Origin: Rhodocollybia butyracea
Taxonomy: Eukaryota; Basidiomycota; Agaricomycetes; Agaricales; Omphalotaceae
Assembly (NCBI GenBank): GCA_015501585.1
Contig: JADNRY010000123.1
Span: 118,015 to 182,014, forward strand
Direction of reading: 5' to 3'
Length of the DNA: 64,000 nucleotides
The notes beneath the pieces were generated by a model that did not search any database, had not been told where the DNA came from, and worked only from the letters and a program-made list of their open reading frames with translations. Both the position numbers and the translations under genes were made by a program. Shown here piece after piece: positions 2,910 through 50,327 of this stretch. How positions within the stretch are numbered: position 1 is the stretch's first letter; each line of letters begins with the position of its first letter.

Positions 2910-5021
2910 TTATACAACGATCTTTCCAATGGATGCTCTGGTGATGTGTCTTGGGTACTCATCTCTATGCAGACCACTGAAGTATGCCCTGGACTTTCTG
3001 GTGACTTCAATTCTAGAGTTGTACTGGTTATGAGAGGTTCGAAGCAGATCAGAGCAAACAGATGCAGTCAATACCGTTTTGTTCCCCAGTGAGGCAGTAA
3101 AAATGACTTCATCAGAAACCAATAGTTGGCCTCTAGTACCAGCGTTACGTGCACTTCGTCTCTGATTATCGCGGTATAAGTTGCAGATATCCTTCGCGGC
3201 TTCCTCGTACTTTGTGTCCTTCAGAAAATAAACATTTGACCATACGGTTTTGTCATTGAATCCGAATGTAACTGCAAATCTTTTCTGATCCTGCTCATGC
3301 CAAAAACAGAGAATGCCTGTGTCACTGGCATCATCCAACAAAAGATTCATGGTATCCTTGTCCCGGTCCTCCCAAGCATTGTCAGGGTATGATTCCTCTA
3401 GAGAGAAACCAGCATTGATCGCGCTGGAGAAGGATACACTGAATTCAAACTGGACCGGAAGAACAGCTGGAGCTACATCAACGACACGGACATTGAGTAT
3501 ATGGCGGAGATCCTTATTCTGGTACTGGCGACGTGTCTCAACGAGGATGGCAACATTATCTGCCAGAGATTTTGACATCCTGTCCACTTGAAGCTTTTTC
3601 TGGCCAAAGACGGCGTAAGACCATTGAATGTACTCGAGATTGGGCTTGTCCGTTTTGAAATTAAGAAGAAGGTCGAACCAGCCCTTTCCAGCCACAACAA
3701 CAAATGGCCGGCGGGTTCGGTCATGTATGAAGAGGAAAGCCTGGGGAAAATCATCCAGTACGAAAACTCCAATGCTATGGTCTACAGGATCAGTGATTTT
3801 GGCGGCAACGGGGATTCGGAAGTCTGCACTGGAGGGGAATACTTCAATAGGCCTAATCCCCTGACCACCAGAAAAGAAGACTGCTACTCGGTCAGAAGAG
3901 GGAAAATTATGTCCGAGGCGGGGAAGATCCCACGCCATGAACAGTAGTTCCTGTGGGCTCCCCTCAATTTTTCCACACATGTTCCGTATTGCGTCTTCTT
4001 CAAGAAGCTTGTTTGGATGAACCCTCTTGTGATTACCCTCACCTGACTTTTCGGTGAAAATGGCCAGACGCTTCGACGTCTTCGATTTACAATTCAGAAG
4101 AGCCAGGAACTCTGACTTGTCATCGATGACGGGTAAGAGGGTAAGGTGGACTAGTAAGCCCATATTGGTCATTGAAAACGGCCGTTGATTGTCGAACCAG
4201 AAAGGCATATACTCGCCACTTCCTTCAAAGACATCTGGACTGGTGGCAACTATCCCGCTAGTATTGGTAGATGGTGACTTCGACTTCCAGGCAAAGATCG
4301 TTTGATCGTTAGAAACCTTCAAAATCTCCTCCTGTAGCCTGATGAACGCATGCTCTCCTTCGCCATAGATCGGGGGCATGTAGACACCAAAGATTCCCAT
4401 TAGTGAATACGCCCTGTCTTCTACGCGTGTTGTCTCCCTTCTAGCGGCCCAAGACATCCTCGCCGCGATACTGCTCTTGCTCAGATCAGCACCCAACAGA
4501 ACCTCTGATGGGATCCCAGTAATCTCTGTGATGGTCTTTTGCAGGCTCGCCTTCGTTCCAATCTTCACCCAGTCATTTGTGAAGAAGAAAACTGTCACCG
4601 GTGCTATCAACTCCTGTAGAGTCCACCCTCTTGTAAACCATTTACACGTCCGGAAGTTCAACTTGAAGGACCGGCCGAGACGGTCACTTCGCATATCCGC
4701 CAGATAGGCATAGCAAATTTCTGCTTTTTTGTAATAACTGTACATCGAGTTGATGGCTTCCGAGAGCTCGGAACTGCTGGATTTATCAATGCAGCAGGTG
4801 TCGATCCAGATGTACTCCCAATCCTCCTTGCGTGCCAGCTCGCATGCTCCCACAAGCTTAGACCACCCTTTCTTCCCCTTTCTCTTCAAAGAATCCTGCA
4901 TATCCTGGAACGTCACCTCCTCGTCTCCCCAGACATGTGAGAGGATTGCATATTTCGGTCTCTTCCGCTCATCAACATAGACGAGCTCCGGGTCTGTACC
5001 AAGGGTTCGAAGGAGTCGCAT
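2910..5021 (-). CDS. HET-domain (heterokaryon incompatibility) protein, 703 aa
   Basis: Intact 703-codon frame. The N-terminal third is a HET domain (Pfam family PF06985): YAILSHVWGDEE at residues 24-35, WIDTCCIDK at 72-80 with the following serine run, CYAYLADM near 103-110, RGWTLQELIAP at 131-141, and EDRAYSLMGIFGVY at 201-214. Proteins of this family act in fungal allorecognition and can trigger cell death after fusion of unlike hyphae; whether this one does is inference. The C-terminal 480 residues carry no NACHT or WD40 repeats and match only the broken copy at 47818-49683. The start at MRLLRT is the usual start context of the family and is shared by both copies. A TATAAA box lies about 120 bases upstream. 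The unknown-family gene follows to the right (fragment at 5941-6200), as in the second module. Confidence 0.9.
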   Translation of the reverse strand: MRLLRTLGTDPELVYVDERKRPKYAILSHVWGDEEVTFQDMQDSLKRKGKKGWSKLVGACELARKEDWEYIWIDTCCIDKSSSSELSEAINSMYSYYKKAEICYAYLADMRSDRLGRSFKLNFRTCKWFTRGWTLQELIAPVTVFFFTNDWVKIGTKASLQKTITEITGIPSEVLLGADLSKSSIAARMSWAARRETTRVEDRAYSLMGIFGVYMPPIYGEGEHAFIRLQEEILKVSNDQTIFAWKSKSPSTNTSGIVATSPDVFEGSGEYMPFWFDNQRPFSMTNMGLLVHLTLLPVIDDKSEFLALLNCKSKTSKRLAIFTEKSGEGNHKRVHPNKLLEEDAIRNMCGKIEGSPQELLFMAWDLPRLGHNFPSSDRVAVFFSGGQGIRPIEVFPSSADFRIPVAAKITDPVDHSIGVFVLDDFPQAFLFIHDRTRRPFVVVAGKGWFDLLLNFKTDKPNLEYIQWSYAVFGQKKLQVDRMSKSLADNVAILVETRRQYQNKDLRHILNVRVVDVAPAVLPVQFEFSVSFSSAINAGFSLEESYPDNAWEDRDKDTMNLLLDDASDTGILCFWHEQDQKRFAVTFGFNDKTVWSNVYFLKDTKYEEAAKDICNLYRDNQRRSARNAGTRGQLLVSDEVIFTASLGNKTVLTASVCSDLLRTSHNQYNSRIEVTRKSRAYFSGLHRDEYPRHITRASIGKIVV

Positions 5022-5940
5022 GATTCTTTTCAGTGTGTGAGTTTGGCAGCATGGGCAGCACCACCTTGACTGAAACGTACCGAAAGACTTTCTGTTTGTT
5101 TAACGACGAAACTGAAAGAGAAAAGCACGCCCTAGGCCCACTTTATAGGTTCATTCACAGGCAGGCAGTGTAAACAAGTGTAGAGCACCATCAATAAGTA
5201 TTAAAAGTGTCACCAAGGCTGCGCGAGCAAAAAGCTGCCCAATTCAGATGAGATGAAATAGATCAATTGAGTGCCTGGGAGAACCACAACACATCACAAA
5301 AGCATGCTCGACGCTCGCTTCTTTGATTTCTTGACACTCAATGAGGCTCAAAGGCTGTCTGCAGACTTACATATGCTGACGTTTACAATCTCCTGATTTC
5401 AATTATCATCTTGGGAGCCTACTGAAGCTTACTGGATAGGTATTCTGTCTGTTCAAACATTGAGAGAACTTAAAAGCAAGCACGTACCTTCAATGACTAT
5501 TGACGGTGTCAATTAGGCCTGTAAGAGCGCTGTATTCAGACAAGGCTACTCAGTGTGCATGACTAGTAGAAAAACTACACTCCAGTTAATATATTGTAAA
5601 ACTATATGTATGCGCACCCTCGTTCTTTCTAATTTTACTAGCCCTTTGATTCATGAGGCTCGAAAGTTGTCCTCGATATCTACATCGATAGGATCATTAA
5701 TATTATCCCTCCTTCCTTCCAAATGAACGATAAGGAAACTTAGATCCACAGGATGAAGTTATATCTGATGTTTGTGGCTAGAACATGTAGACAAACGATC
5801 AACAAACGATAAGGCAAAAGATATGGACTTGGACCTCGTTTCATCGTTTGTACAAGACAAAAAAGCTACCCGTCCGTGGTAGCGATAAGCGCTAAGTGTT
5901 AGTTTAGGCGCTGATCAACTCCTTCCTTCAACAGCCATGA
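5022..5940. other. HET promoter and intergenic region
   Basis: Bases 5022-5290 align with 49684-49935 upstream of the second HET copy. The rest is AT-rich with no frame of note. Confidence 0.5.
5142..5147 (-). promoter_or_regulatory. TATA box of the HET gene
   Basis: TATAAA on the minus strand about 120 bases before the HET start codon. The same element, in the context CCTATAAA, is kept at 49782-49787 upstream of the broken HET copy, and more than 250 bases of surrounding promoter sequence are alignable. Confidence 0.5.
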
Positions 5941-14112: not shown

Positions 14113-15016
14113 ATGGGACCTACTATCCCTTCCTCAAATCCTGATAGGTTTGACAACCGTCCCCTCCCTCCTCACATGCCAGGACCAGTACAATTGCCAA
14201 GAGTGGAACCATGGACTAGCCACGTCTACACTTACGCCAATCAAACCACAGTCATGCCAACCGCTCCTCCCGCTACCCAGGTCGGATTTATCCCCCCGCA
14301 ACCAGGCCCAACAGGAGTATCCAGAGGTGTAATGGCTCCAGGAGCAGCAGTTGGACAGTCAGTAGGTCCTCCACCTCTCCCAGGAATCCCCTATGGAGGC
14401 CCTCCCAGCGGTCCAGGCGGTCATCCAGGTGGTCATCCAGGTGGTCCAGGTGGTCCAGGTGGTCCTCCAGGTGGTCCAGGTCCTCCAGGTGGTCCAGGTC
14501 CTCCAGGTGGTCCAGGTCCTCCAGGTGGTCCAGGTCCTCCAGGTGGTCCAGGTCCTCCAGGTGGTCCAGGTCCTCCAGGTGGTCCAGGTCCTCCAGGTGG
14601 TCCAGGTCCTCCAGGTGGTCCAGGTCCTCCAGGTGGTCCAGGTCCTCCAGGTGGTCCAGGTCCTCCAGGTGGTCCAGGTCCTCCAGGTGGTCCAGGTCCT
14701 CCAGGCAGTCTAGGTCATCCAGGTGGTCTGGGTGGTCTGGGTGGTCCTTCAGGCGGTCCAGGCGGTCCTCCAGGTGCTCCAGGTGGTCCAGGTCCAGGCA
14801 GTCCCCCAGGCGGACCTGGGGGCCTCCAGGCGGACCTGGGGAGCCTCCAGGTGGACCTGGGGGCCCTCCAGGCGGTCCTCCAGGCGGCCCCCCAGGTGTT
14901 CCCAGTGGTCATGGAGCTCCTGCGGTAAACAATGCTATGGATTGGCAGATTAATAGGAAACTTCCGCCCTCATTGATTCCCAGATGGGATGGGAATGGAA
15001 AAGCCATAATCCAATA
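14113..15016 (+). pseudogene. Gag of the gypsy element, 5' part with collagen-like repeats
   Basis: A Pro-rich start (MGPTIPSSNPDRF) is followed by Gly-Pro repeats and then by NNAMDWQINRKLPPSLIPRWDG. The last part lies in the -1 register relative to the start: near 14824 one C is missing from GGGGGCCTCC compared with the neighbouring unit GGGGGCCCTCC. Reading is cut at 15016 by the CACTG-ended element. Coding resumes at 21627 in register with KAIIQY once the element and one ATA are removed. Confidence 0.65.
14480..14706 (+). repeat. 18-bp tandem repeat encoding Gly-Pro triplets
   Basis: About a dozen copies of the 18-bp unit GGTCCAGGTCCTCCAGGT. In the Gag frame it reads GPGPPG, that is Gly-X-Y triplets as in collagen. 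Looser copies extend to about 14900. The long open frames in other registers (VQVLQV) are by-products of the repeat. Confidence 0.85.
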
Positions 15017-27267: not shown

Positions 27268-27272
27268 GTTGT

Positions 27273-28528
27273 TGTTATGACTCGATCAATAGTCTCGTCC
27301 AAACCTTCACAGTACATAACTCGGCAGTAAAAATGATAAGAGAAATTAATGAGATTATAGAGCAAGCCTTTCCGTTCGTTGAAACCGCTAGGCAAAAAAT
27401 ATATACTCAAACAACTAGGCTCAAGTAAAGTTAGTAACTAGTTTGTAATATGAAACTCACAGAAGTTATTATTTGGAGATAGCTCGACAAATAATAATAA
27501 GATTACCCTTGGAGATGGCTCGACAAGCAGTAATATGAATCAGAACTAATACTCGGAGATGGCTCAACAAGTAGTAGTGAGTGTGGTGTCTAGTACTCGG
27601 AGATAGCTCAACAAGTAATAGTGAGTGTGGTGTCTAGTACTTGGAGATAGCTCAACAAGTAATAGTGAGTGTGGTGTCTAGTACTCGGAGATAGCTCAAC
27701 AAGTAATAGTGAGTGTGATGTCTAATACTTGGAGATAGCTCAACAAGTAATAGGAAGTTGCAACTCGGAGATAGCTCAACAAGTGGCAATTAAAGAAGTA
27801 TTCACTAGGAGATAGCTCAACAGGTGAATGTTAGTGGATACAACTTGGAGTTAGCTCAACAAGATGTATAAATGTGTATTGTAGCTTGGAGATAGCTCAA
27901 CAAGATACAATGAGTTGGTCTGGTGATTCACACAAGTGATAACAGCAAACAAGTGGGGGTTTGGATTTAAGAAAATAATACGTCTCACGTACATTGGTCA
28001 ATCTAGACTACTTATATACTGTGCAATGTGTACTAGTTAGGAAATGCTGCGGAATGACTAGATTTGAGTCATAACTGCGGAAATACTGTGGATGAGTCAG
28101 TCTGACTATGTAATGCTGTGCAATGACTAATATTGAGTCATGTATGCGGAACCGTAGTTGACTCAGATATCTGGCTGTGCAATGACTGATATTGAGTCAT
28201 TGATGTAAAGAGGCTATGCAATGATGTCATAGCTGTGGAGCAGTGATGTGATATCATAACTGCGGAGCAATGGAATGACATCATGATTGTGGAGTAGCAA
28301 GATGACATCATAGTTGTGGAGCTAGAATGATGTCATGACTGTGCAGACTGTGCAGTGACTGTTAAAGATCATTCTGGTGTTCTGGAAGAATGTGTGCAGC
28401 ATTAACCCAAATGGTGTTGAATAACTAATGAATGTAAAATGTTAAGTAGAAGTATTAATGATAGTGTTCATAGTTGGTTACAGAAGAAAAAAGATTGGGT
28501 GTATAGGATTTAGATCCGGGTCATAACA
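27273..28528 (-). repeat. 3' LTR of element B
   Basis: 1256 bp. In element orientation it runs from 28528 to 27273, with U3 at 28528-27987 and the transcribed part beyond. Contains eleven hairpins (27466-27911). Confidence 0.92.
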
Positions 28529-28545
28529 GTACTCCCCCTTAAGAC
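28529..28545 (-). promoter_or_regulatory. Polypurine tract of element B
   Basis: Minus strand TTAAGGGGGAGTAC ends at the 3' LTR, the expected plus-strand primer. Confidence 0.65.
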
Positions 28546-30038: not shown

Positions 30039-33000
30039 TTATATTTCCCCTCCTTCAGGGTCTCCTTCCATGAGTGTGCTGTCAATATCAATGACTTCAC
30101 CCTCAACTTCAAGTGTAATATTGCTTGGTGTGTCACTGGAAGTGTCCATAAATGTAGCTCGACCCGATACATTATTGCGCCGTTGTGGGCAGTTTCTGGT
30201 GAAATGGCCCATCTCACCACAGTAAGTGCAAGCCCCTTTTGCTCGTCTTTGGTCATACTCCTCTTGAGTGACCCAAGCCATTTGTACTACAGCTGAAGCC
30301 TCATTGATATAATTGTTTCTAGAACTGTTGTGATTCATTCTAGATGGTCTTTGAGTCTGTGTGTTAGATGTAGTAGCGTCCTGTGGTTGAACTTGTGTTG
30401 TATGATTATTAGGCGGAATATTCTGATTGAAATTTGTGTTTGCAAAGGTGGAGTAGCTGTTTCCTGACTGGTTGTGGTCAAGGGTTTGATTATTTGTGTT
30501 TTCATTTTGGGTATTGTTATTCCCAGTTCTGAAATTATTCCCAAGTCCGGAATCATAAAATGCTTCTCGTGCGCCATCAATGTCCAATAGCCTATCAACA
30601 ACATCCTGATATGTTTCTGGCAAATTGCCAACCATTGTTAGACGGTTGCGCAGATCTGGCCGGATCTGATTCAGAAGTCTCCATCGCTTAGCAGGATCAT
30701 TGTAAGTGGTGCGGTTAGCAATGTCTTCAAACTTGACTAAAAAGTCTGCAAATGACTCTCTTGAGACTTGTATACATTTATCTAGTTGTGATTGAGCATG
30801 CATTTTCTCATCATGGAGACCAAACATGCGTCCAAACAACTTAACAAACTCTGACCAGATATTCAATGCTGGAGTAAAGGATTCATTTTCTCCATTAGCC
30901 TGTTTTTCTACCAGATTATTGTAGTACTTTGCTGCAGGTCCTGTAAGGTATGATGCGGCAAATGTAATTTTTGAATTATCTGTAGAGTAAGTCATTGGCT
31001 TTGCATTGAACATTATCAGCACTGAATTTAGAAATGCTCTCCATGCGGCTCTGTTAGATCCATCAAATGGTGTTGGTTTGTTGATGTCAAGTTTTGACTC
31101 TCTCGTCAGAGCTCTAGTGGCTTCTTCATTCCTTCTTTTCTGTTCCTCTCTTTCCGGATTGTGCTCATTGCCATTTCTACCGTCACGTCCATCTCTTCCA
31201 TCTCTTCCATCTCCTCTGTCTTTACAGCAGCAACAATGAGATCTGCCACAAGGCTGTTTTGGAGGTTCACCATCATTTGGTGGTGGAGGAGGTTCATTGG
31301 GTCTGCTGTTCCTGTAGGAATTGTTTCCGTTGTTCTCACCATTGTTTCTGCTTTGGTCATTCCCTTCACTATGATTTCCAGGGTCATCTGGTGGTGGGGG
31401 TGATGGTGGCGCTCCTCCTGATGCTTGGACAGGTGCCTTGCCTTTGTTTGGGATGAATGGGTAACCATTCATTGGCAAAAATTCATTTGCTTCAACAGCC
31501 CAATTCAGACCTAAAGGTGACCTAGGTACAACAGTCTTATGAGTCTGTGGAACCTGACCATGATGTGTGAGCAAATGTGGTGGCTCTACTAGCTCTACAG
31601 GAGATTGGATGGTTATGGGAATGTGAGGGGAGTCAAATGTATTTTTTGTAACTTGTGTCTCAGGAAATACCTGCCGACTTGTTGAGGCTTGAGCAGGTTC
31701 ATATTTTGTAGGCATTGCAAAATCCTGCTTTCTGCTTCTAAGTCTTGTATTTCTTTTCCCTTGATCAAATAGTGAGTGACTACCACTTGCATGAGGTGGC
31801 TCATCTCGTTGAAGTAGAGTTCTGGAGTGATCATGTTGATTTTCATTTCTCACTACTTGCTCCATTTTTTCAACAGGGTTAGTCACTAATGGCATATGTG
31901 TTGTGGGTTGAATAATTGGTATATTAACATTTTGAGGACTTGGTGGTTGAACCCTTCTTGTCCAGGCAAGTATTCTGTCAGTCTCATTAGAGCTTTCATT
32001 TTGCCTAGAGTTCCTCTCTGTAAGTGGAACATGAGTTTCTTCCACATTTCTTGTGTTCTCAACTGATTGATTTCTTTGTATGGAGGTTTGTGCACTTGGT
32101 GGAACTTCTGCTTTTGATGAGGTTTGCACTGGTGTGTGAACACTTGGTGCATTTTCCTGTACTTTGGCCATCTGGCTCATATGAACAGAAGGTGCTAATT
32201 CTGCACTAGTGCTACTTCTTGCCCTCAATAAAACTTGAACTCCATTCCTTTGTGTCTCGTTATACAGGTATGTTAACATTTGGCTATTCCTTTTGTCTGA
32301 TATCCGCTGATACAGACTTGGACTTAGTAATGCAAGCTCACTCTGACCTAGTCTTTCCAACTGTTGAACCCATTGCCAAGGCTGAGCATTTCTGCTTCTA
32401 TAGCCTAATGACTCTAAGAATATTTGGCATTGTTGACTAAGTCTGTCAAACTGTGTCTGTCCATTTTGAAGCTGGTTCAAAATTGGTACACTATTGCTTG
32501 ACTTATGTGAGTCTTGTTTTGCTGAGCTTTTTACTGAGCTTTTGGAAGATCCACTTGGTGATGGGATGTTCCTGACAGTTAAAACTGGTTGCAAAACTTG
32601 CAATTGAACAGGTGATTGTTCATGTCCTTGTGACTGGTTTAAACTCCTAACAGCACTTAAAGCAGTATGGTCTGACTGAGAATTGTGAGATTGATGTGGT
32701 GGGAACTCATGATGTGAGCTACTATGAGCCACAGAATGCTCTTGGATCTCCTCAGGGACTACAGACAATGGAGACCTTCTAACAGGCTCAGATTGTCTTG
32801 TACTTGGCCTTGTAAGAGATTGTTGTTCTCTATACTGTGCTTGTAACGAGTCAAAAAATTCAATTATAGGTGTCTGTGATTGATTCACAATTGCTTGTGG
32901 CAATACATTCCTACTAATTGACTGTATGGGTGATGAGTGGCGGCTGTGTGAAGGATTTTGTTGAGGTTCTGAGACCTGAAGTATATCCCTGTTTTGCCTT

Positions 33001-33455
33001 GTAGAGTGTTCACCCTGAGATTTATGTGTTTCAGATTGCACAGAATGGCTATGATGTGAAGAAGGTAGAGGTACATTTGCTGCAAGAGTAAGATTTTGCT
33101 GTTGTCCTCGCGAACCATTATCAACTAAATGACTGGTGGAACGGTCTTCGTGATGAGCAAATATCTCAGAAATCTCTGCAGTAGGGGTCATTCTAACTTC
33201 TTGAACCACAGTTTCAGTGAAATTTGATCCATTTGATCCAATGTGAATTCTCCGCATCACTACAACTTCACCTTCTGATATTTCAGTGGGTGTCCACTGA
33301 CTTATGTCTCCAACATTAGGATTGTCTTGTCCCAGTGTATATCCTGGAGCATTAAAACCGGTTGGAATAGTTTGATTACTAGATCCTTGAACAAATGTTT
33401 CAGGATGGTGATGAGACCCAGTTTGGGTGCGCGTTTGAGTTGTTTGTGTAGACAT
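30039..33455 (-). CDS. Gag protein of element B, 1138 aa, intact
   Basis: Forms the particle and packages RNA. Residues 1-730 are Ser/Gln/His/Asn-rich and of low complexity, far longer than the usual Gag N-terminus. A cysteine cluster SHCCCCKD and DGR repeats lie near 735-755, followed by a charged linker. Residues about 785-985 form the capsid-type retrotransposon Gag domain (TPFDGSNRAAWRAFLN, AASYLTGPAAKYYNNL, FADFLVKFEDIANRT, RWRLLNQIRPDLRNRL). A canonical zinc knuckle CTYCGEMGHFTRNC lies near 1075-1090 (C-x2-C-x4-H-x4-C), followed by an acidic tail. There is no protease or other enzyme motif downstream. The start at 33455 lies 30 bases inside the LTR, the first ATG after the primer site; the inferred 5' UTR is about 744 bases. 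Confidence 0.92.
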   Translation of the reverse strand: MSTQTTQTRTQTGSHHHPETFVQGSSNQTIPTGFNAPGYTLGQDNPNVGDISQWTPTEISEGEVVVMRRIHIGSNGSNFTETVVQEVRMTPTAEISEIFAHHEDRSTSHLVDNGSRGQQQNLTLAANVPLPSSHHSHSVQSETHKSQGEHSTRQNRDILQVSEPQQNPSHSRHSSPIQSISRNVLPQAIVNQSQTPIIEFFDSLQAQYREQQSLTRPSTRQSEPVRRSPLSVVPEEIQEHSVAHSSSHHEFPPHQSHNSQSDHTALSAVRSLNQSQGHEQSPVQLQVLQPVLTVRNIPSPSGSSKSSVKSSAKQDSHKSSNSVPILNQLQNGQTQFDRLSQQCQIFLESLGYRSRNAQPWQWVQQLERLGQSELALLSPSLYQRISDKRNSQMLTYLYNETQRNGVQVLLRARSSTSAELAPSVHMSQMAKVQENAPSVHTPVQTSSKAEVPPSAQTSIQRNQSVENTRNVEETHVPLTERNSRQNESSNETDRILAWTRRVQPPSPQNVNIPIIQPTTHMPLVTNPVEKMEQVVRNENQHDHSRTLLQRDEPPHASGSHSLFDQGKRNTRLRSRKQDFAMPTKYEPAQASTSRQVFPETQVTKNTFDSPHIPITIQSPVELVEPPHLLTHHGQVPQTHKTVVPRSPLGLNWAVEANEFLPMNGYPFIPNKGKAPVQASGGAPPSPPPPDDPGNHSEGNDQSRNNGENNGNNSYRNSRPNEPPPPPNDGEPPKQPCGRSHCCCCKDRGDGRDGRDGRDGRNGNEHNPEREEQKRRNEEATRALTRESKLDINKPTPFDGSNRAAWRAFLNSVLIMFNAKPMTYSTDNSKITFAASYLTGPAAKYYNNLVEKQANGENESFTPALNIWSEFVKLFGRMFGLHDEKMHAQSQLDKCIQVSRESFADFLVKFEDIANRTTYNDPAKRWRLLNQIRPDLRNRLTMVGNLPETYQDVVDRLLDIDGAREAFYDSGLGNNFRTGNNNTQNENTNNQTLDHNQSGNSYSTFANTNFNQNIPPNNHTTQVQPQDATTSNTQTQRPSRMNHNSSRNNYINEASAVVQMAWVTQEEYDQRRAKGACTYCGEMGHFTRNCPQRRNNVSGRATFMDTSSDTPSNITLEVEGEVIDIDSTLMEGDPEGGEI

Positions 33456-33484: not shown

Positions 33485-33678
33485 ATGTTATGACTCGATC
33501 AATAGTCTCGTCCAAACCTTCACAGTACGTAACTCGGCAGTAAAAATGATAAGAGAAATTAATGAGATTATAGAGCAAGCCTTTCCGTTCGTTGAAACCG
33601 CTAGGCAAAAAATATATACTCAAACAACTAGGCTCAAGTAAAGTTAGTAACTAGTTTGTAATATGAAACTCACAGAAG

Positions 33679-34124
33679 TTATTATTTGGAGATAGCTCGA
33701 CAAATAATAATAAGATTACCCTTGGAGATGGCTCGACAAGCAGTAATATGAATCAGAACTAATACTCGGAGATGGCTCAACAAGTAGTAGTGAGTGTGGT
33801 GTCTAGTACTCGGAGATAGCTCAACAAGTAATAGTGAGTGTGGTGTCTAGTACTTGGAGATAGCTCAACAAGTAATAGTGAGTGTGGTGTCTAGTACTCG
33901 GAGATAGCTCAACAAGTAATAGTGAGTGTGATGTCTAATACTTGGAGATAGCTCAACAAGTAATAGGAAGTTGCAACTCGGAGATAGCTCAACAAGTGGC
34001 AATTAAAGAAGTATTCACTAGGAGATAGCTCAACAGGTGAATGTTAGTGGATACAACTTGGAGTTAGCTCAACAAGATGTATAAATGTGTATTGTAGCTT
34101 GGAGATAGCTCAACAAGATACAAT
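33679..34124 (-). repeat. Eleven-hairpin array in the 5' UTR of element B
   Basis: Tandem units of 36-45 bp, each with the constant core GAGATAGCTCAA (rare variants GAGATGGCTCGA, GAGTTAGCTCAA) between complementary arms of 9-11 bases. Arms differ between units yet pair: TTATTATTTG/CAAATAATAA, TTGCAACTCG/CAAGTGGCAA, ATTGTAGCTTG/CAAGATACAAT. The same array is at 27466-27911. It lies between the inferred RNA start and the gag start. Confidence 0.9.
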
Positions 34125-34223
34125 GAGTTGGTCTGGTGATTCACACAAGTGATAACAGCAAACAAGTGGGGGTTTGGATTTAAGAAAATAATACGTCTCA
34201 CGTACATTGGTCAATCTAGACTA

Positions 34224-34231
34224 CTTATATA
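34224..34231 (-). promoter_or_regulatory. TATA box of element B
   Basis: TATATAAG on the minus strand, about 25-32 bases before GAGACGTATTATT (34199-34187), the inferred 5' end of the RNA. The same box is in the other LTR at 28011-28018. Confidence 0.6.
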
Positions 34232-34277
34232 CTGTGCAATGTGTACTAGTTAGGAAATGCTGCGGAATGACTAGATT

Positions 34278-34548
34278 TGAGTCATAACTGCGGAAATACT
34301 GTGGATGAGTCAGTCTGACTATGTAATGCTGTGCAATGACTAATATTGAGTCATGTATGCGGAACCGTAGTTGACTCAGATATCTGGCTGTGCAATGACT
34401 GATATTGAGTCATTGATGTAAAGAGGCTATGCAATGATGTCATAGCTGTGGAGCAGTGATGTGATATCATAACTGCGGAGCAATGGAATGACATCATGAT
34501 TGTGGAGTAGCAAGATGACATCATAGTTGTGGAGCTAGAATGATGTCA
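34278..34548 (-). promoter_or_regulatory. Cluster of bZIP-type sites in U3 of element B
   Basis: In the left LTR, where coordinates were read directly, TGAGTCA/TGACTCA occurs at 28065, 28093, 28134, 28159 and 28193. TGACATCA/TGATGTCA occurs at 28222, 28276, 28303 and 28328, plus TGATATCA at 28249. This LTR has the same set 6213 bases higher. They are AP-1/Gcn4-like and CRE-like palindromes, upstream of the TATA box. Confidence 0.55.
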
Positions 34549-34746
34549 TGACTGTGCAGACTGTGCAGTGACTGTTAAAGATCATTCTGGTGTTCTGGAA
34601 GAATGTGTGCAGCATTAACCCAAATGGTGTTGAATAACTAATGAATGTAAAATGTTAAGTAGAAGTATTAATGATAGTGTTCATAGTTGGTTACAGAAGA
34701 AAAAAGATTGGGTGTATAGGATTTAGATCCGGGTCATAACAGTTGT

Positions 34747-35464: not shown

Positions 35465-38400
35465 CAGTAGCATTATTTAAATACCCCCAGTACCTGTTGT
35501 GGAGATTATGATAATAAACCCAGTAAGCTACTGTACAGTAAGAGTGTAGGGGCATTTTAATCCCTCTGTGTTCGCATTTGATGAGGTCATGTGACTTGTT
35601 CGTTGCAGCTTTTGGGTGGCTGGAGGAAAATAGGTTATTTACGGGCCTATTTAGGCAATTTCTGGGATGGTAGCTAGCCCAAAAAAGACTATATATAATG
35701 TATTAATATTTGAGCACTACTCCGAGGTAGATTAGGCACCATAAGGGGATGGATTGCATCGAAAAATCTAGATGACGTTTGGTCAAAGCTGGCTGAGCAT
35801 TACCAAATTGGGTAATGCCATCAAAACAGTAAAAGCGGCCTAAAAAGTATGCCTCTACATGGATATTCCGCCCTATAAGAGTGTAGATAGTATCTTTACA
35901 TATATAATAGGTCCCTGCAGCGAAATTACAGTGATAGCTGCAGTCAAAGCTGTTTTATTACCATATTTAGAATGCCAGCAAAGCGGCCTAAAAGCTTGTT
36001 TATGCATGGGTATTCTACCTAATAGCAGTCTATACAATGTTTATAGATGTCAGTGGGCACCTAAAGCAAAACTAAAGCAGGTATATGGTGTAATAGTAGC
36101 ACTGCTTCGATGTTTGGGTCTGTGGCTGTGTTGTAAAAAATCGAAATAAAAGTAGGGATGTTTAATATACTAGTGGTACAGGCATGGTCTCTGCATAATG
36201 TATGTATGCCTGAAGCGAAATCAGAGCATTCTATGGAGAGAATAGGCTGTAATTGCCCGCTCTAGGCCGGAGGAGGTCAAAGCTGTATGACCAAATAGGG
36301 AAATATATGATTACATACAGGTGGTGTTGAGTCGAAGTTGGGCTCAGTAATGGCATGGCCTCTCAAGGTCTGAGGCCAGGAATACATATCTGAGTGCTGT
36401 AGTATACTAGCTACGCCCTCCAGGTGTTATATTTGACAATATGTGGGCAGGAATATGTACATGGAGTGATCAATGGTGAGTAACCATCAAAATTCGCATT
36501 TTTGAGGAATTAAATACTAATAATAAGTGTCTAAGCGCAGGTAGGACCTCAAAACTCGGTAGGTATACTCCCCAGCATAGTATACACCTGATCCGTGTCC
36601 AAGAACAATTTATATGGCACCAGATGCGATGGTATACACTGATCTTTATTGATTTTCCCTCAAAACTCGATTTTTTGAGGTATCATCATGGAATATTGGG
36701 GCCTTAAGAGTAGCCAGGCGGCTAAGACGTCGTGGATAGACTGTACTATATGGTATTAGTCTTTGCCATATGCAAGAACGATTTATGCAGCACCTGAAGC
36801 GATGGTATTCCCTGATCTGTATGGATTCTGCGAAAAAATGCGATTTTCAGGAAATAAAATAGGCATAGAGTGTGCTACAAGTCTCAGATCATACTAAAAA
36901 CCTGGGAAACATGTCTTCGAATTGAATTCAACAACTACCAGGTGTTATATTCACATCTGGGTACCTCCATGGAACAATACTGTTGTAAGTGCACACTAGG
37001 ATATCTCTAGTTGGCTCAAAGTTCAGATCGTGACATTGAGATGTACATACTCAAACCTTTTGGTCTGGAGGGCCTCTATATGATTCGAATACATGATTAC
37101 CCAAGTTTGAGCATAGTCTGAGGTGCATAGCACACTCTATGCCTATTTTATTTCCTGAAAATTGCATTTTTTCACAGAATCCATACAGATCAGGGAATAC
37201 CATCGCTTCAGGTGCTGCATAAATTGTTCTTGCATATGGCAAAGACTAATACTCTATAGTACAGTCTATATACAACGTCTTAGCCCCCTGGCTACTCTTA
37301 AGGCCCCAATAATCTATGATAATTCCTCAAAAAATCGAGTTTTGAGGGAAAATCAATAAAGATCAGTGTATACCATCGCATCTGGTGCCATATAGATGGT
37401 TCTTGGACATGGATCGAGTGTATACAATGTAGGAGAGTATACCTACCGAGGTTTGAGGTCCTACCTGCGCTTAGACACTCAATATTAGTATTTAATTCCT
37501 CAAAAATGCGAATTTTGATGGTTACTCACCATTGATCACTCCATGTACATATTCCTGCCCACATATTGTCAAATATAACACCTGGAGGGCGTAGCTAGTA
37601 TACTACAGCACTCAGATATGTATTCCTGGCCTCAGACCTTGAGAGGCCATGCCATTACTGAGCCCAACTTCGACTCAACACCACCTGTATGTAATCATAT
37701 ATTTCCCTATTTGGTCATACAGCTTTGACCTCCTCCGGCCTAGAGCGGGCAATTACAGCCTATTCTCTCCATAGAATGCTCTGATTTTGCTTCAGGCATA
37801 CATACATTATGCAGAGACCATGCCTGTACCACTAGTATATTAAACATCCCTACTTTTATTTCGATTTTTTACAACACAGCCACAGACCCAAACATCGAAG
37901 CAGTGCTACTATTACACCATATACCTGCTTTAGTTTTGCTTTAGGTGCCTACTGTACATCTATAAACATTGTATAGACTGCTATTAGGTAGAATACCCAT
38001 GCATAAACAAGCTTTTAGGCCGCTTTGCTGGCATTCTAAATATGGTAATAAAACAGCTTTGACTGCAGCTATCGCTGTAATTTCGCTTCAGGGACCTATT
38101 ATATATGTAAAGATACTATCTACACTCTTATAGGGCGGAATATCCATGTAGAAGCAGGCTTTTTAGGCCGCTTTTACTGTTTTGATGGCATTACCCAATT
38201 TGGTAATGCTCAGCCAGCTTTGACCGAACGTCATCTAGATTTTTCGATGCAATCCATCCCCTTATGGTGCCTAATCCACCTCGGAGTAGTGCTCAAATAT
38301 TAATACATTATATATAGTCTTTTTTGGGCTAGCTATCATCCCAGAAATTGCCTAAATAGGCCCGTAAATAACCTATTTTTGTCCAGCCACCCAAAAGCTG

Positions 38401-38541
38401 CAACGAACAAGTCACATGACCTCATCAAATGCGAACACAGAGGGATTAAAATGCCCCTACACTCTTACTGTACAGTAGCTTACTGGGTTTATTATCATAA
38501 TCTCCACAACAGGTACTGGGGGTATTTAAATAATGCTACTG
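35465..38541. mobile_element. 3.08-kb foldback element with about 1.45-kb arms
   Basis: The two halves are inverted copies: CAGTAGCATTATTTAAATAC starts the left arm at 35465 and its complement ends the right arm at 38541. The arms meet near 36925 and 37085 around a spacer of about 160 bp. They differ by scattered substitutions, so the copy is not brand new. There are no coding frames. Internal sub-repeats include CAAGAACAATTTATATGGCA against CAAGAACGATTTATGCAGCA. No clear target duplication is visible (ATTG left, AAGC right). Confidence 0.85.
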
Positions 38542-45140: not shown

Positions 45141-45465
45141 TGCGACCCTAACCCTAACCCTAGCCCAACCCTAGCCTGCTGTACAGCCTCCCTGCCATTT
45201 TAACCCTAACCCAACCCTAATCAACCCTAAACCCTAACCTGAGACACCCTAACCCACCCTAACCCTAATCCTAACCTTTTACCCTAACCCTAACCCTAAC
45301 CTAAAACTAGCAGGAGCAAGCCCCTGCACCCCATTGATATTCTCACCCTAACCCTAAACCTAACCCCTAACTCCCAACCCCTAACCCTAACTAAGTGCTC
45401 CCCATATTTGGCAATGACTCAGACAGCTCTCCATGTTATTTGGGCTAACCCTAACGAGAGCTGCC
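45141..45465 (+). repeat. Interstitial telomeric repeat, degenerate (CCCTAA)n
   Basis: Dozens of CCCTAA/CCCTAAC units mixed with variants and short non-telomeric inserts. CCCTAA reads left to right, the orientation of a left chromosome end. It is internal here, between the relic and the broken HET gene. Confidence 0.9.
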
Positions 45466-47303: not shown

Positions 47304-47817
47304 CACACAAGCACATGTACATCCACATTCCTTGGTACCTTCGCCTTACTTTGCTCAAGTCCCGTTGTCTTCGCACAGTATGCTCAATGGGCAGGCGGAC
47401 AGGCAGCGAGAGGCATGGTAGCAGAGATGTAGTTGATTACTCTGAATCCTTTCTTTGTACCATTCCTGATATCCCTTTGGAACCTCACAGTATTGGCTTT
47501 GCTACTTTCTTGGGTATAGTATTTCTATCTCTAGCTTTTCTGCTATGTGTACTTATGACCTACATAGCCAGCTACATTTGTAGTTTATACAGCGATCTTT
47601 TCTACTTGGGTCTGGCGTGAGTAGTTGAGTGTGCAAAGGACCACTGTGTCAACCTGGTTGGAACTTTCTAGTAAATGTTAATCTCAGAATTGTACTGGTT
47701 ATGAGAGTTTTGAAGTGGATATGAACAAACAGCTACAGTCAATTCTGTTTTGTCCCCTGCTGAGGAATTAAAAGCAACTTTGTCATGAGCAAATAGTTTG
47801 CCTAGACTACGTGCACT

Positions 47818-49683
47818 TCACTTCTGATTATCACGGTATGAGCTGCAGATATCCCTTGCGGTCTCTTCGTACTCTGTGTCCTTCAGAAAGCAAACATCTG
47901 ACCATACGGTTTTGTCGTGGAATCCAAATGTAACTGCAAATCTTTTCCAATCCTGCTCATGTCGAAAACAGAGAATGCCTGTGTCACTGACATCATCCAA
48001 CAAAAGATTCATAGTATCCTTGTCCCATTCCTCCCAGGCATCATCAGGGTATGATTCCACTATAGAGAAACCAGTGTTGTTCGCACTGGAGAAGGATACA
48101 CTGAAAGCATACTGGATCGGAAGAACAGCTGGAGCTACATTGATGACACAGACATTGAGCACATAGCGGATGCGTTCATTCTGGTACTGGCGACGTGTCT
48201 CAACAAGGATGGCAACATTATCTGTCAGATATTTTGATACTCTGTCAAGCTTCTGGCGATTGCCGTAAGACCGTCGAATGTCCTCGAGATTGGGCTCGTA
48301 CGTTTTGAAATCGAGAAGAAGGTCCAACCAGCCGTGTTCAGCTACAACAACAAACAGCTGGTGGGTCGGGTCATGCATGAAGAGGAAGGTGTGGGGCAAA
48401 TCCAAAAAAAGCGAAATATCATGTGTGAAGCAATGATCCGCAGGAGCAGTGATTTTAGAGACATGGAGGCCTGCATCAGAGGAGTTTACTCTAATGGGCC
48501 TAATTTCCTGACCACCAGAAAAGACGACTGCTATTTGGTCAGGATAGAAGTGATTACTTCCTAAATAGGGAGGATCTCACACCCTGAACGATAGTTCCTG
48601 TGGGCTCCCCTCAAATTTTTCACACATGTCCCGTATTTCATCACCTTCAACAAGCTCACTTGATTGAACCCTCTTGTAATTACCTTCATTTGACTTTACC
48701 CGTGAATATGGCCAGATGCTTTGACGTCTTTGATTCACAGTTCAAAAGAGCCAGAAACTGTGGCTTTTTCTGGCATTGTGGCTCGTCATCGATATCGATG
48801 ACAGGCAGAAGAAGAAGGTGGAGTAGTAAGCCCATATTGGTGATTGAAAACAGCCGTTGGTTGTTGGACTGGAAGGGCATATACTCACCACTTCCTTCAA
48901 ACACATCTGGACTGGTGGCAAGTATCCCGCTGTTAGTTGGCCGCCAGTCTTTCCAGGCAAAGATCGTGTGATCATGGGACGCCTTTATAATCTCCTCCTG
49001 TAGCCTGATAAATGCATGCTCTCCTTCACCGTAGATCGGCGGCATGTAAACACCAAAGATTCCCATCAGCGAATATGCCCTGTCTTCTACGCGTGTTGTC
49101 ATCCTTCTAGCAGCCCAAGACATTCTTGCTGCGATACTGCTTTGCTTCAGATCGGCCCCCAGCCAGTAATAGCTGTAATAGTCTCTTGCAGGCTTGCCTT
49201 TGTTCCAGTCTTCTCCCATTTGTTTGTGAAGAAGAAAACTGTCTCCGGTGCTATCAACTCCTGCAATGTCCAACCTCTCATCCACCTCCGGAAGTTCAAC
49301 TTGAAGGACCGGCCGAGATGGTCACTCCGCATATCCGCCAGGTAGGCATAGCAGACTTGTGCTTGGCGGTAGTATCTGTACATCAAATTGATGGCTTCCG
49401 AGAGCTCAGAACTGCTGGATTTATCAATGCAGCAGGTGTCAATCCAGATGTACTCCCAATCCTCCTTGCGCGCCTGTTTGCATGCTCCCACAAGCTTAGA
49501 CCACCCTTTCATCCCCTTTCTCTTCAAAGAATCTTGCATATCCTGGAACGTCACCTCCTCGTCTCCCCAGACATGTGAGAGGATCGCATATCTCGGTTGC
49601 TTCTTCTCATCAACGTAGATGAGCTCTGGGTCTGTACCAGTGGTCCGAAGGAGTCGCATGATAATAGTCTGATACCTGTTCAA
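47818..49683 (-). pseudogene. HET-domain gene, second copy, frameshifted
   Basis: Homologous along its length to 2910-5021. The N-terminal HET domain is well kept (YAILSHVWGDEE, WIDTCCIDK, RGWTLQELIAP) down to about 49160. There about 20 bases are missing compared with the intact copy (ITG then WGP instead of ITGIPSEVLLGADL), shifting the frame. Coding resumes in 49285-48686 (ADLKQSSIAARMSWAARR, EDRAYSLMGIFGVY), is lost again near 48690, and resumes in 48405-47818. At least two shifts therefore disable it. A truncated HET domain could still be made from 49683. Confidence 0.88.
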
Positions 49684-49781
49684 TGTGTGAATTCAGTAGC
49701 ATAGCCAGTATCTCTTGAATGAAATGTACTGAAAGGATTTCTGTTTGGTCAATGACTAGAGAGAGCAAGCCCTGGGCCCAA

Positions 49782-49787
49782 TTTATA
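49782..49787 (-). promoter_or_regulatory. TATA box kept upstream of the broken HET gene
   Basis: TATAAA on the minus strand, equivalent to 5142-5147. Confidence 0.45.
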
Positions 49788-50327
49788 GGTTTGTTCACAG
49801 GCAGGCACCATAAACGGGTGTAGAACATCACCGATAAGCGCTTAAGCATTAATGGTTTCACCAAGGCCAACAGAAATGCTGCCCAATTCAGATGAGATAA
49901 GATAGATTAATTGAGTGCCTGGGAGAACCACAATTACACGCTCGGTGCTTGTCTCTTTGATTTCTTGACACTCAACGAGGCTCAAAGGCTGTCTGCAGAC
50001 CTACATATCCTACGATCATCCTGGGAACTAGATGAGCATAGGGAAACTTCTATCCACAGGACCAAGAGGGCCTAGTGAGGTTACAAATATTCTGGATGCA
50101 GGATCATTCCGGGAACATGTAGATGAGTGATACAGGAACTTAGATCCACAAGACAAACAGGGCAGTGAGGTTATGGTACACCAAGCATTAGTTTAATGTT
50201 CTCCATCCATTCCTTTGCTTAACCACCATGACAAACACCATACCTTGTTCCATACCAATGCTAAATCACTCTCCAACTCCAAAGAGATAACCCTTATCCG
50301 CTGAGACAGTTCTCAATCAGATATACT

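What the first reader, a model, noticed from the sequence alone, without database searches (positions are those of the whole stretch)
33679..34124. Eleven tandem RNA hairpins with a constant cap and covarying stems in the LTR of a gag-only element
Each unit keeps GAGATAGCTCAA (GAG and CTC pair again, leaving a four-base loop and a two-base bulge) but its arms differ: TTATTATTTG/CAAATAATAA, TTGCAACTCG/CAAGTGGCAA, ATTCACTAG/CAGGTGAAT, ATACAACTTG/CAAGATGTAT, ATTGTAGCTTG/CAAGATACAAT. Different sequences with the same pairing is what selection on structure leaves. Some mismatches (C opposite A on the plus strand) become G-U pairs in the element RNA, which favours an RNA role. The array lies in the inferred 5' UTR between RNA start and gag, and again in the 3' LTR (27466-27911). 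Packaging, dimerisation, translation control or capture of a helper's Gag or RT are possible roles. Sequence shows the structure; the role is inference.
Basis: partly seen in the sequence, partly recalled or inferred. Interest (0 to 1): 0.92.

Follow-up and report, generated by a model that had tools for sequence, protein, structure and literature searches.

The report
Hairpin array in fungal retrotransposon leader
A mushroom jumping gene that makes only a shell protein carries, at the start of its RNA, a row of small hairpins that all show the same tip on differently spelled stems, probably docking sites for a protein that packs or handles the RNA.

Summary
Each LTR carries eleven hairpin units with a near-constant cap and stems that differ but still pair. 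The whole array folds better than shuffles only as element-sense RNA (z -3.7 sense, -0.9 antisense).

The surroundings say where it acts. A TATA box lies 33 nt upstream of AGACGTATTATT, the exact complement of the sequence just after the 5' LTR: the layout of Tf1-type self-primed reverse transcription. The 742-nt leader from there to gag has no ATG (about 10 expected; 0 of 2000 shuffles). So the array sits in the 5' leader, between self-primer and primer-binding site.

The genome (probably Rhodocollybia butyracea) holds an estimated 300 such arrays, with 5 to at least 16 units in those read. No pol-bearing member was identified, but most internal regions were not read.

Best explanation: repeated protein-binding RNA hairpins, most likely a multivalent packaging site for Gag. 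This role is inferred. A compaction role for priming gained no support: scrambled leaders close equally well (60 of 60). Covariation rests on about seven related stems in one species.

The parts
27268..27272 (.). target site duplication, left copy (GTTGT)
   Evidence: right copy at 34742-34746
34742..34746 (.). target site duplication, right copy (GTTGT)
33486..34741 (-). 5' LTR (1256 bp), one base different from the 3' LTR
27273..28528 (-). 3' LTR; carries a second copy of the array at 27465-27911
34240..34565 (-). U3 block of dyads (ATGAYRTCAT / ATGACT..AGTCAT) with CTCCRCAG; enhancer-like by appearance, upstream of the inferred RNA start
   Evidence: sequence; repeat
34224..34231 (-). TATA box TATATAAG
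34187..34198 (-). self-primer AGACGTATTATT, inferred 5' end of the element RNA
34171..34178 (-). TCCAAACC, 5' strand of predicted long-range helix P2
33678..34124 (-). array of 11 hairpin units (sense cap GAGCYAWCTC)
33511..33518 (-). GGTTTGGA, 3' strand of predicted long-range helix P2
33473..33484 (-). primer-binding site AATAATACGTCT, one base after the 5' LTR; complementary to the self-primer
30039..33455 (-). gag ORF, 1138 aa: Retrotrans_gag at residues 832-923, CCHC knuckle at 1075-1091
28529..28540 (-). polypurine tract AAGGGGGAGTAC

Best explanation
The array is a run of RNA hairpins in the 5' leader of a self-priming, gag-only Ty3/gypsy-type element. Shown from sequence: near-constant cap on stems that differ yet pair; sense-strand folding of the array; position between a 12-nt self-primer at the inferred RNA 5' end and its complement at the primer-binding site; an ATG-free leader; much the same ordered units in the copies read, with 5 to at least 16 repeats. 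Ribosomes would scan the same leader to reach the gag start.
For: Cap kept while arms change: GAG and CTC in all ten aligned units, outer arms mostly different; compensatory pairs. Over 75 locus stretches (related, some overlapping), stem plus cap-stem sites vary at 19 of 214 against 29 of 128 spacer/mismatch sites. Array z -3.70 in sense, 0 of 100 shuffles as good; -0.88 in antisense, 14 of 100. ATG-free leader in the window, 0 of 2000 shuffles; 35 of 41 leaders have no ATG from self-primer to the end of the PBS. Self-primer:PBS pairs 12 of 12 Watson-Crick in 32 of 41 leaders, 3 have one G-U, 6 one mismatch. Gag constrained: dN/dS 0.43-0.50 in 4 comparisons of N-terminal pieces. Against the window, four leader regions have median identities of 97.9-99.0% over 40-43 of 43 copies, while the first 450 nt of gag are 84-86% in the 4 copies where they were compared; in L031 the U3 is much diverged.
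Against: No protein binding, transcript or particle data. No Gag motif shown to read this cap. High leader identity may reflect recombination between LTRs rather than selection: in L011, L020 and L028 the U3 is also 99.6-99.8% identical. The compensatory changes come from about seven related stems inside one array. Wobble asymmetry is weak and single units do not clearly prefer the sense strand. The unit number varies freely, so no fixed count is needed. In 23 of 41 leaders an ATG stands 4 nt before the gag start, so 'first ATG is gag' holds for the window's class, not for the other.
Confidence: 0.5

Rival explanations
1. DNA-level binding sites: the cap is the site of a DNA-binding protein, giving an insulator or downstream enhancer, as the repeated Su(Hw) sites of Drosophila gypsy do (recalled, from no call).
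For: Repeated 13-mer core downstream of the promoter; the same LTR has a dyad repeat upstream of the TATA box that looks like a DNA-type array.
Against: A DNA site does not explain compensating arms, sense-preferring folding of the array or stem sites less variable than spacers.
Confidence: 0.13
2. RNA dimerisation: identical units in two RNAs form extended duplexes, so that two genomes pair in register.
For: Homodimers of units 1 and 6 are predicted 3 kcal/mol more stable than two hairpins; the one unlike pair computed gains nothing.
Against: Any imperfect palindrome behaves so; it gives no reason for a constant cap. Three pairs computed only.
Confidence: 0.12
3. Folding aid: the hairpins compact the leader so that the self-primer reaches the primer-binding site.
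For: The array lies exactly between the two strands; the predicted fold closes the self-primer helix in 40 of 40 distinct leaders.
Against: Leaders with a shuffled interior or a shuffled array close the helix equally well, 60 of 60 each, with a like number of unpaired bases outside helices.
Confidence: 0.08
4. Translation or RNA-fate control by a host RNA-binding protein that reads the cap, including a decoy role.
For: ATG-free leader, as expected if ribosomes scan it.
Against: No host reader identified; gives no reason for so many copies.
Confidence: 0.12
5. No function: tandem repeats whose arms were made palindromic by template switching (quasi-palindrome correction; recalled).
For: Tandem duplication is plainly at work (5 to at least 16 units).
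Against: Does not predict a constant cap, G-U pairs kept in sense, absence of ATG, or stem sites less variable than spacers.
Confidence: 0.05

Closest known systems
Tf1/sushi-type self-priming LTR retrotransposons (Tf1, Tj1; Tcn1 proposed)
   Same: Primer-binding site is complementary to the 5' end of the RNA (PMC4600332 and PMC7175516, passages read).
   Different: No pol in the window's element; a leader of about 500-800 nt, much of it a hairpin array, lies between primer and PBS.
TR-GAG non-autonomous LTR elements (known from plants)
   Same: LTRs, PBS, PPT and a gag-only ORF (definition recalled).
   Different: In an agaric fungus; open gag frames of 749 aa or up to 1152 aa; hairpin array. 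TR-GAG papers seen only in a search listing.
Multiple packaging signals of single-stranded RNA viruses (MS2 type)
   Same: Shared recognition motif in loop and 5' bulge on many hairpins of differing sequence (PMC6281560, passages read).
   Different: Tandem and clustered in the leader, not dispersed; no binding shown.
Retroviral packaging leaders (psi)
   Same: Structured leader near the PBS, implied Gag reader (recalled).
   Different: Retroviral leaders use a few unlike hairpins (recalled), not a tandem array of one.
Conserved Hairpin Site of fungal GalEa Copia elements
   Same: Hairpin thought to be essential for transposition of fungal LTR elements, near the site of priming (PMC5445492, passages read).
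   Different: One hairpin after the LTR in elements without a PBS; Copia, not Gypsy.

Membership tests
Tf1/sushi-type self-priming element | PBS complementary to the 5' end of the element RNA | tested here: met
   12 of 12 pairs in 32 of 41 leaders, 3 with one G-U, 6 with one mismatch; the RNA 5' end is inferred from the TATA box and the ATG boundary, not measured
Tf1/sushi-type self-priming element | PBS adjacent to the 5' LTR and not a tRNA (TGG) site | tested here: met
   LTR-T-AATAATACGTCT
Tf1/sushi-type self-priming element | RT/RNase H of that clade in the element | tested here: not met
   between gag and PPT no ORF of 100 aa or more except a 104-aa frame overlapping the gag end
Tf1/sushi-type self-priming element | cleavage after about nt 11 of the RNA | not testable with these tools
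   needs experiment
TR-GAG / gag-only non-autonomous LTR element | LTRs, PBS, PPT, TSD and gag, no pol | tested here: met
   window element. PBS-to-PPT distances in 30 copies: 18 at 3.43-3.53 kb, 6 at 4.91-4.96 kb, 6 others of 4.2-8.7 kb; insides of most not read
Multivalent packaging signal | repeated hairpins with a shared motif and variable stems | tested here: met
Multivalent packaging signal | specific binding by capsid/Gag and need for packaging | not testable with these tools
   needs experiment
gypsy-type DNA insulator array | sites act as double-stranded DNA, no need for paired arms | tested here: inconclusive
   arms pair beyond chance, which that model does not need; a DNA role on top is not excluded
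Rfam RNA families | match at gathering score | tested here: not met
   0 matches in the window

The most novel reading that the evidence does not exclude
A tandem packaging and priming module: a self-primed retrotransposon leader built of 5 to 16 or more repeats of one protein-binding hairpin, exchanged as a unit among gag-only elements, so that a family without polymerase is carried by strength of RNA-Gag valency; the unlike stems could also act as a register code for pairing like RNAs.
Probability: 0.3. Interest if true: 0.82.

Novelty: new variant of a known kind. Interest (0 to 1): 0.62.

Why it matters
To my knowledge packaging and priming signals of LTR retrotransposons outside yeasts are little known. 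Here one leader shows the probable RNA start, the self-primer, the PBS and a repeated, countable hairpin whose copy number varies naturally in one genome. That makes valency and cap recognition directly testable, and shows how gag-only elements can stay constrained in Gag and leader.

Tried and rejected
Compaction for self-priming: no support, shuffled leaders close as well.

Primer:PBS covariation as proof of use: L083 and L086 have matching double changes, but apart from L075 all variant letters lie at the CpG of ACGT, and five leaders are mismatched there. With 6 and 2 primer variants against 3 and 1 matching PBS variants among 41, about 0.4 and 0.05 matches are expected by chance (hand sum). 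Treated as inconclusive.

Wobble asymmetry: 10 G-U, 4 G-U-to-Watson-Crick, 6 A-C and 2 other variant types; points to sense RNA, too weak alone. Folding single units does not separate the strands: antisense is more stable for units 1, 2, 3, 10 and 11, sense for the other six.

Autonomous partner: C523 and C561 looked long enough, but the extra stretches gave no pol domain in the four ORFs scanned. None found; not excluded elsewhere.

Relatives elsewhere: the only Gag relatives reported are from Dendrothele bispora (8 proteins), whose DNA is not held here. The cap pattern had 0 exact matches in viral contigs and 1 in a Vibrio contig, taken as chance. The genome cannot be searched with an RNA model.

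Literature on a hairpin array in an LTR element leader: searches listed none that I recognised from titles and abstract starts (one listed no paper at all); one search looked for the host genome. Most subscription papers are not in that library.

Full report
Where it is. The window is fungal: a HET-domain gene, and Gypsy, Copia and LINE fragments. It lies in a 95.6-Mb assembly, contig C257. The HET protein encoded at 2910-5099 has its best match, 67%, in Rhodocollybia butyracea, and that protein's contig length (173,864) equals that of contig C323 of this assembly. So the host is probably R. butyracea; this is inference.

The element. On the minus strand: 5' LTR 34741-33486, gag 33455-30039, PPT 28540-28529, 3' LTR 28528-27273; 5-bp target duplication GTTGT; LTRs differ by 1 base of 1256. 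Gag is 1138 aa with a Retrotrans_gag domain (E 1.3e-7) and a CCHC knuckle. Between gag and PPT there is no ORF of 100 aa or more except a 104-aa frame overlapping the gag end.

The array. Eleven units at 33678-34124. In sense orientation each reads arm, TT or TC, GAGCYAWCTC, arm. GAG and CTC are invariant in ten aligned units. Stems differ and pair: on seven stem types the true partners have mean duplex energy -2.7 against 0.0 kcal/mol for swapped partners, reached by 1 of 5040 permutations, the identity itself; the gapless pair count is reached by 4 of 5040; one swapped pair (unit 4 with unit 10) is stronger than any true one. Counting on the ungapped alignment: 89.2% of cells paired against 78.8% in shuffles; 6 of 13 pairs have double changes (5 of 500 shuffles reach this); covariation score 0.321 against 0.139, 0 of 500; the number of further pair types is not above shuffles (173 of 500); sliding the partner by 1 to 3 columns drops pairing to 36-50%. 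The units are related, so these counts are not probabilities. The cap has two possible registers which the data do not separate.

Which strand. The 456-nt array folds at -98.8 kcal/mol in sense, z -3.70 (0 of 100 shuffles as good), and at -113.2, z -0.88 (14 of 100), in antisense: lower in energy, but no better than its own shuffles. Single units do not separate the strands: antisense is more stable for 5 of 11. Variants at stem positions in related copies: 10 types give G-U in sense, 4 turn G-U into Watson-Crick, 6 give A-C, 2 others: in the right direction, weak.

Where the RNA starts. TATATAAG at LTR position 511 is followed 33 nt on by AGACGTATTATT (544). One base after the 5' LTR comes AATAATACGTCT, its exact reverse complement. 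A 12-mer match somewhere in a 1256-nt LTR has a simple chance near 7.5e-5. There is no TGG tRNA site. [quoted passage not shown]). The 742 nt from there to the gag ATG hold no ATG; shuffles give about 10 and none of 2000 gives 0; the 512 nt of U3 hold 14. The last upstream ATG begins 9 nt before the self-primer. Of 43 leaders with a junction, 41 (the window's own included) have a placeable self-primer; L074 and L096 were dropped for lack of one. In 35 of the 41 no ATG lies between self-primer and the end of the PBS; the exceptions are L064, L083, L084, L085, L086 and L087. After the PBS, 18 have the gag ATG first (the window's class); 23 have an ATG 4 nt before it, which in the two read (L011, L028) opens a frame of 7 codons.

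Long-range fold. Without constraint the predicted fold of the leader closes with the self-primer:PBS helix and UCCAAACC:GGUUUGGA, z -4.60, 0 of 20 shuffles. All 40 distinct leaders close the first helix with 11 or 12 pairs, and 325 of 370 unit stems form. But leaders with shuffled interiors or shuffled arrays close it just as well, 60 of 60 each, so the array is not needed for closure in this model.

Copies. The cap pattern with one mismatch has 3535 matches in the genome against 341 for the reversed control; at about ten units each that is roughly 300 arrays, an estimate. Of 69 places matching the LTR/PBS junction, 51 are exact, 4 have one mismatch and 14 two; 13 of the 14 are a second PBS-like sequence. 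Thirty of the 55 junctions pair with a downstream PPT: distances of 3.43-3.53 kb in 18, 4.91-4.96 kb in 6, and 6 others. Arrays in the 41 leaders have 5 to 13 units, the stretch of L096 at least 16. In most copies read the order of units is kept and the middle unit varies in number; L067 lacks the first units and L080 one more.

Conservation. Against the window, four leader regions have median identities of 97.9-99.0% over 40-43 of 43 copies. In the four copies where the first 450 nt of gag were compared (L011, L020, L028, L031) gag is 83.9-85.9% and the leader regions 93.4-100%; over longer gag stretches L020 and L031 are 95% and 92%, L011 and L028 80-83%. In L031 the U3 is diverged and rearranged (aligned pieces of 70 bases or more at 76-87%). 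In L011, L020 and L028 the U3 is as close as the leader (99.6-99.8%), so exchange of whole LTRs explains part of this. Gag N-terminal pieces show dN/dS of 0.43-0.50 in four comparisons, so Gag is constrained. Stem plus cap-stem sites vary in 19 of 214, cap-loop sites in 6 of 54, spacer and mismatch sites in 29 of 128 (20 of 739 unit hits dropped; the 75 stretches are related and some overlap).

Reading. A constant cap on stems that need only pair is what sequence-specific recognition of a hairpin leaves. MS2 packaging hairpins share a loop motif and a 5' bulge over differing stems (passages of PMC6281560). A tandem run of such sites beside the priming site of a gag-only element suggests multivalent Gag binding for packaging. 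That step is inference. Alternatives, with reasons, are listed among the rivals.

Limits. All copies come from one genome and most read here are alike. Gag relatives were reported only from Dendrothele bispora, 44-61% identical over parts of the capsid region, and their DNA could not be read here. No polymerase-bearing partner was found, though the search was partial.

Noticed in passing
window 34240-34565 and 28027-28352: U3 carries a second repeat block of dyads (ATGAYRTCAT, ATGACT..AGTCAT) with CTCCRCAG; in L031 it is expanded in about 26-27-bp steps. Looks like a DNA-level enhancer array.
   Followed up: partly
C534, C705, C808, C1038, C472, C495, C550, C784, C637: In 8 of 18 copies of the 3.45-kb class, and in C534, a second PBS-like site (GTCATAAAATAATAATACATCYC) lies about 2.9 kb after the first; it can pair with the rarer primer variant AGATGTATTATT.
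   Followed up: partly
gag start of L011, L028 and 21 other leaders: One class of leaders has ATGAATG at the gag start: an ATG 4 nt upstream, opening a 7-codon frame in the two read.
   Followed up: partly
C523:88969-97073 and C561:100039-107837 (L081, L082): Two copies with the second PBS-like site carry about 4.4-4.6 kb of extra internal sequence with no recognised pol domain in the four ORFs scanned.
   Followed up: partly
window 35465-36922 and 37083-38541: A 1.46-kb inverted repeat, 96% identical, arms 160 bp apart, next to a reverse transcriptase ORF, probably Gypsy.
   Followed up: no
window 45145-45391: Degenerate TAACCC/ACCCTA telomere-like repeats inside the contig.
   Followed up: no
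window 14412-14896: Tandem tract with an 18-bp period (TCCAGGTCCTCCAGGTGG) in open frames, collagen-like.
   Followed up: no
window 2990-5381 and 47659-50014: Two copies (80% identical) of a region with a HET gene, about 45 kb apart.
   Followed up: no
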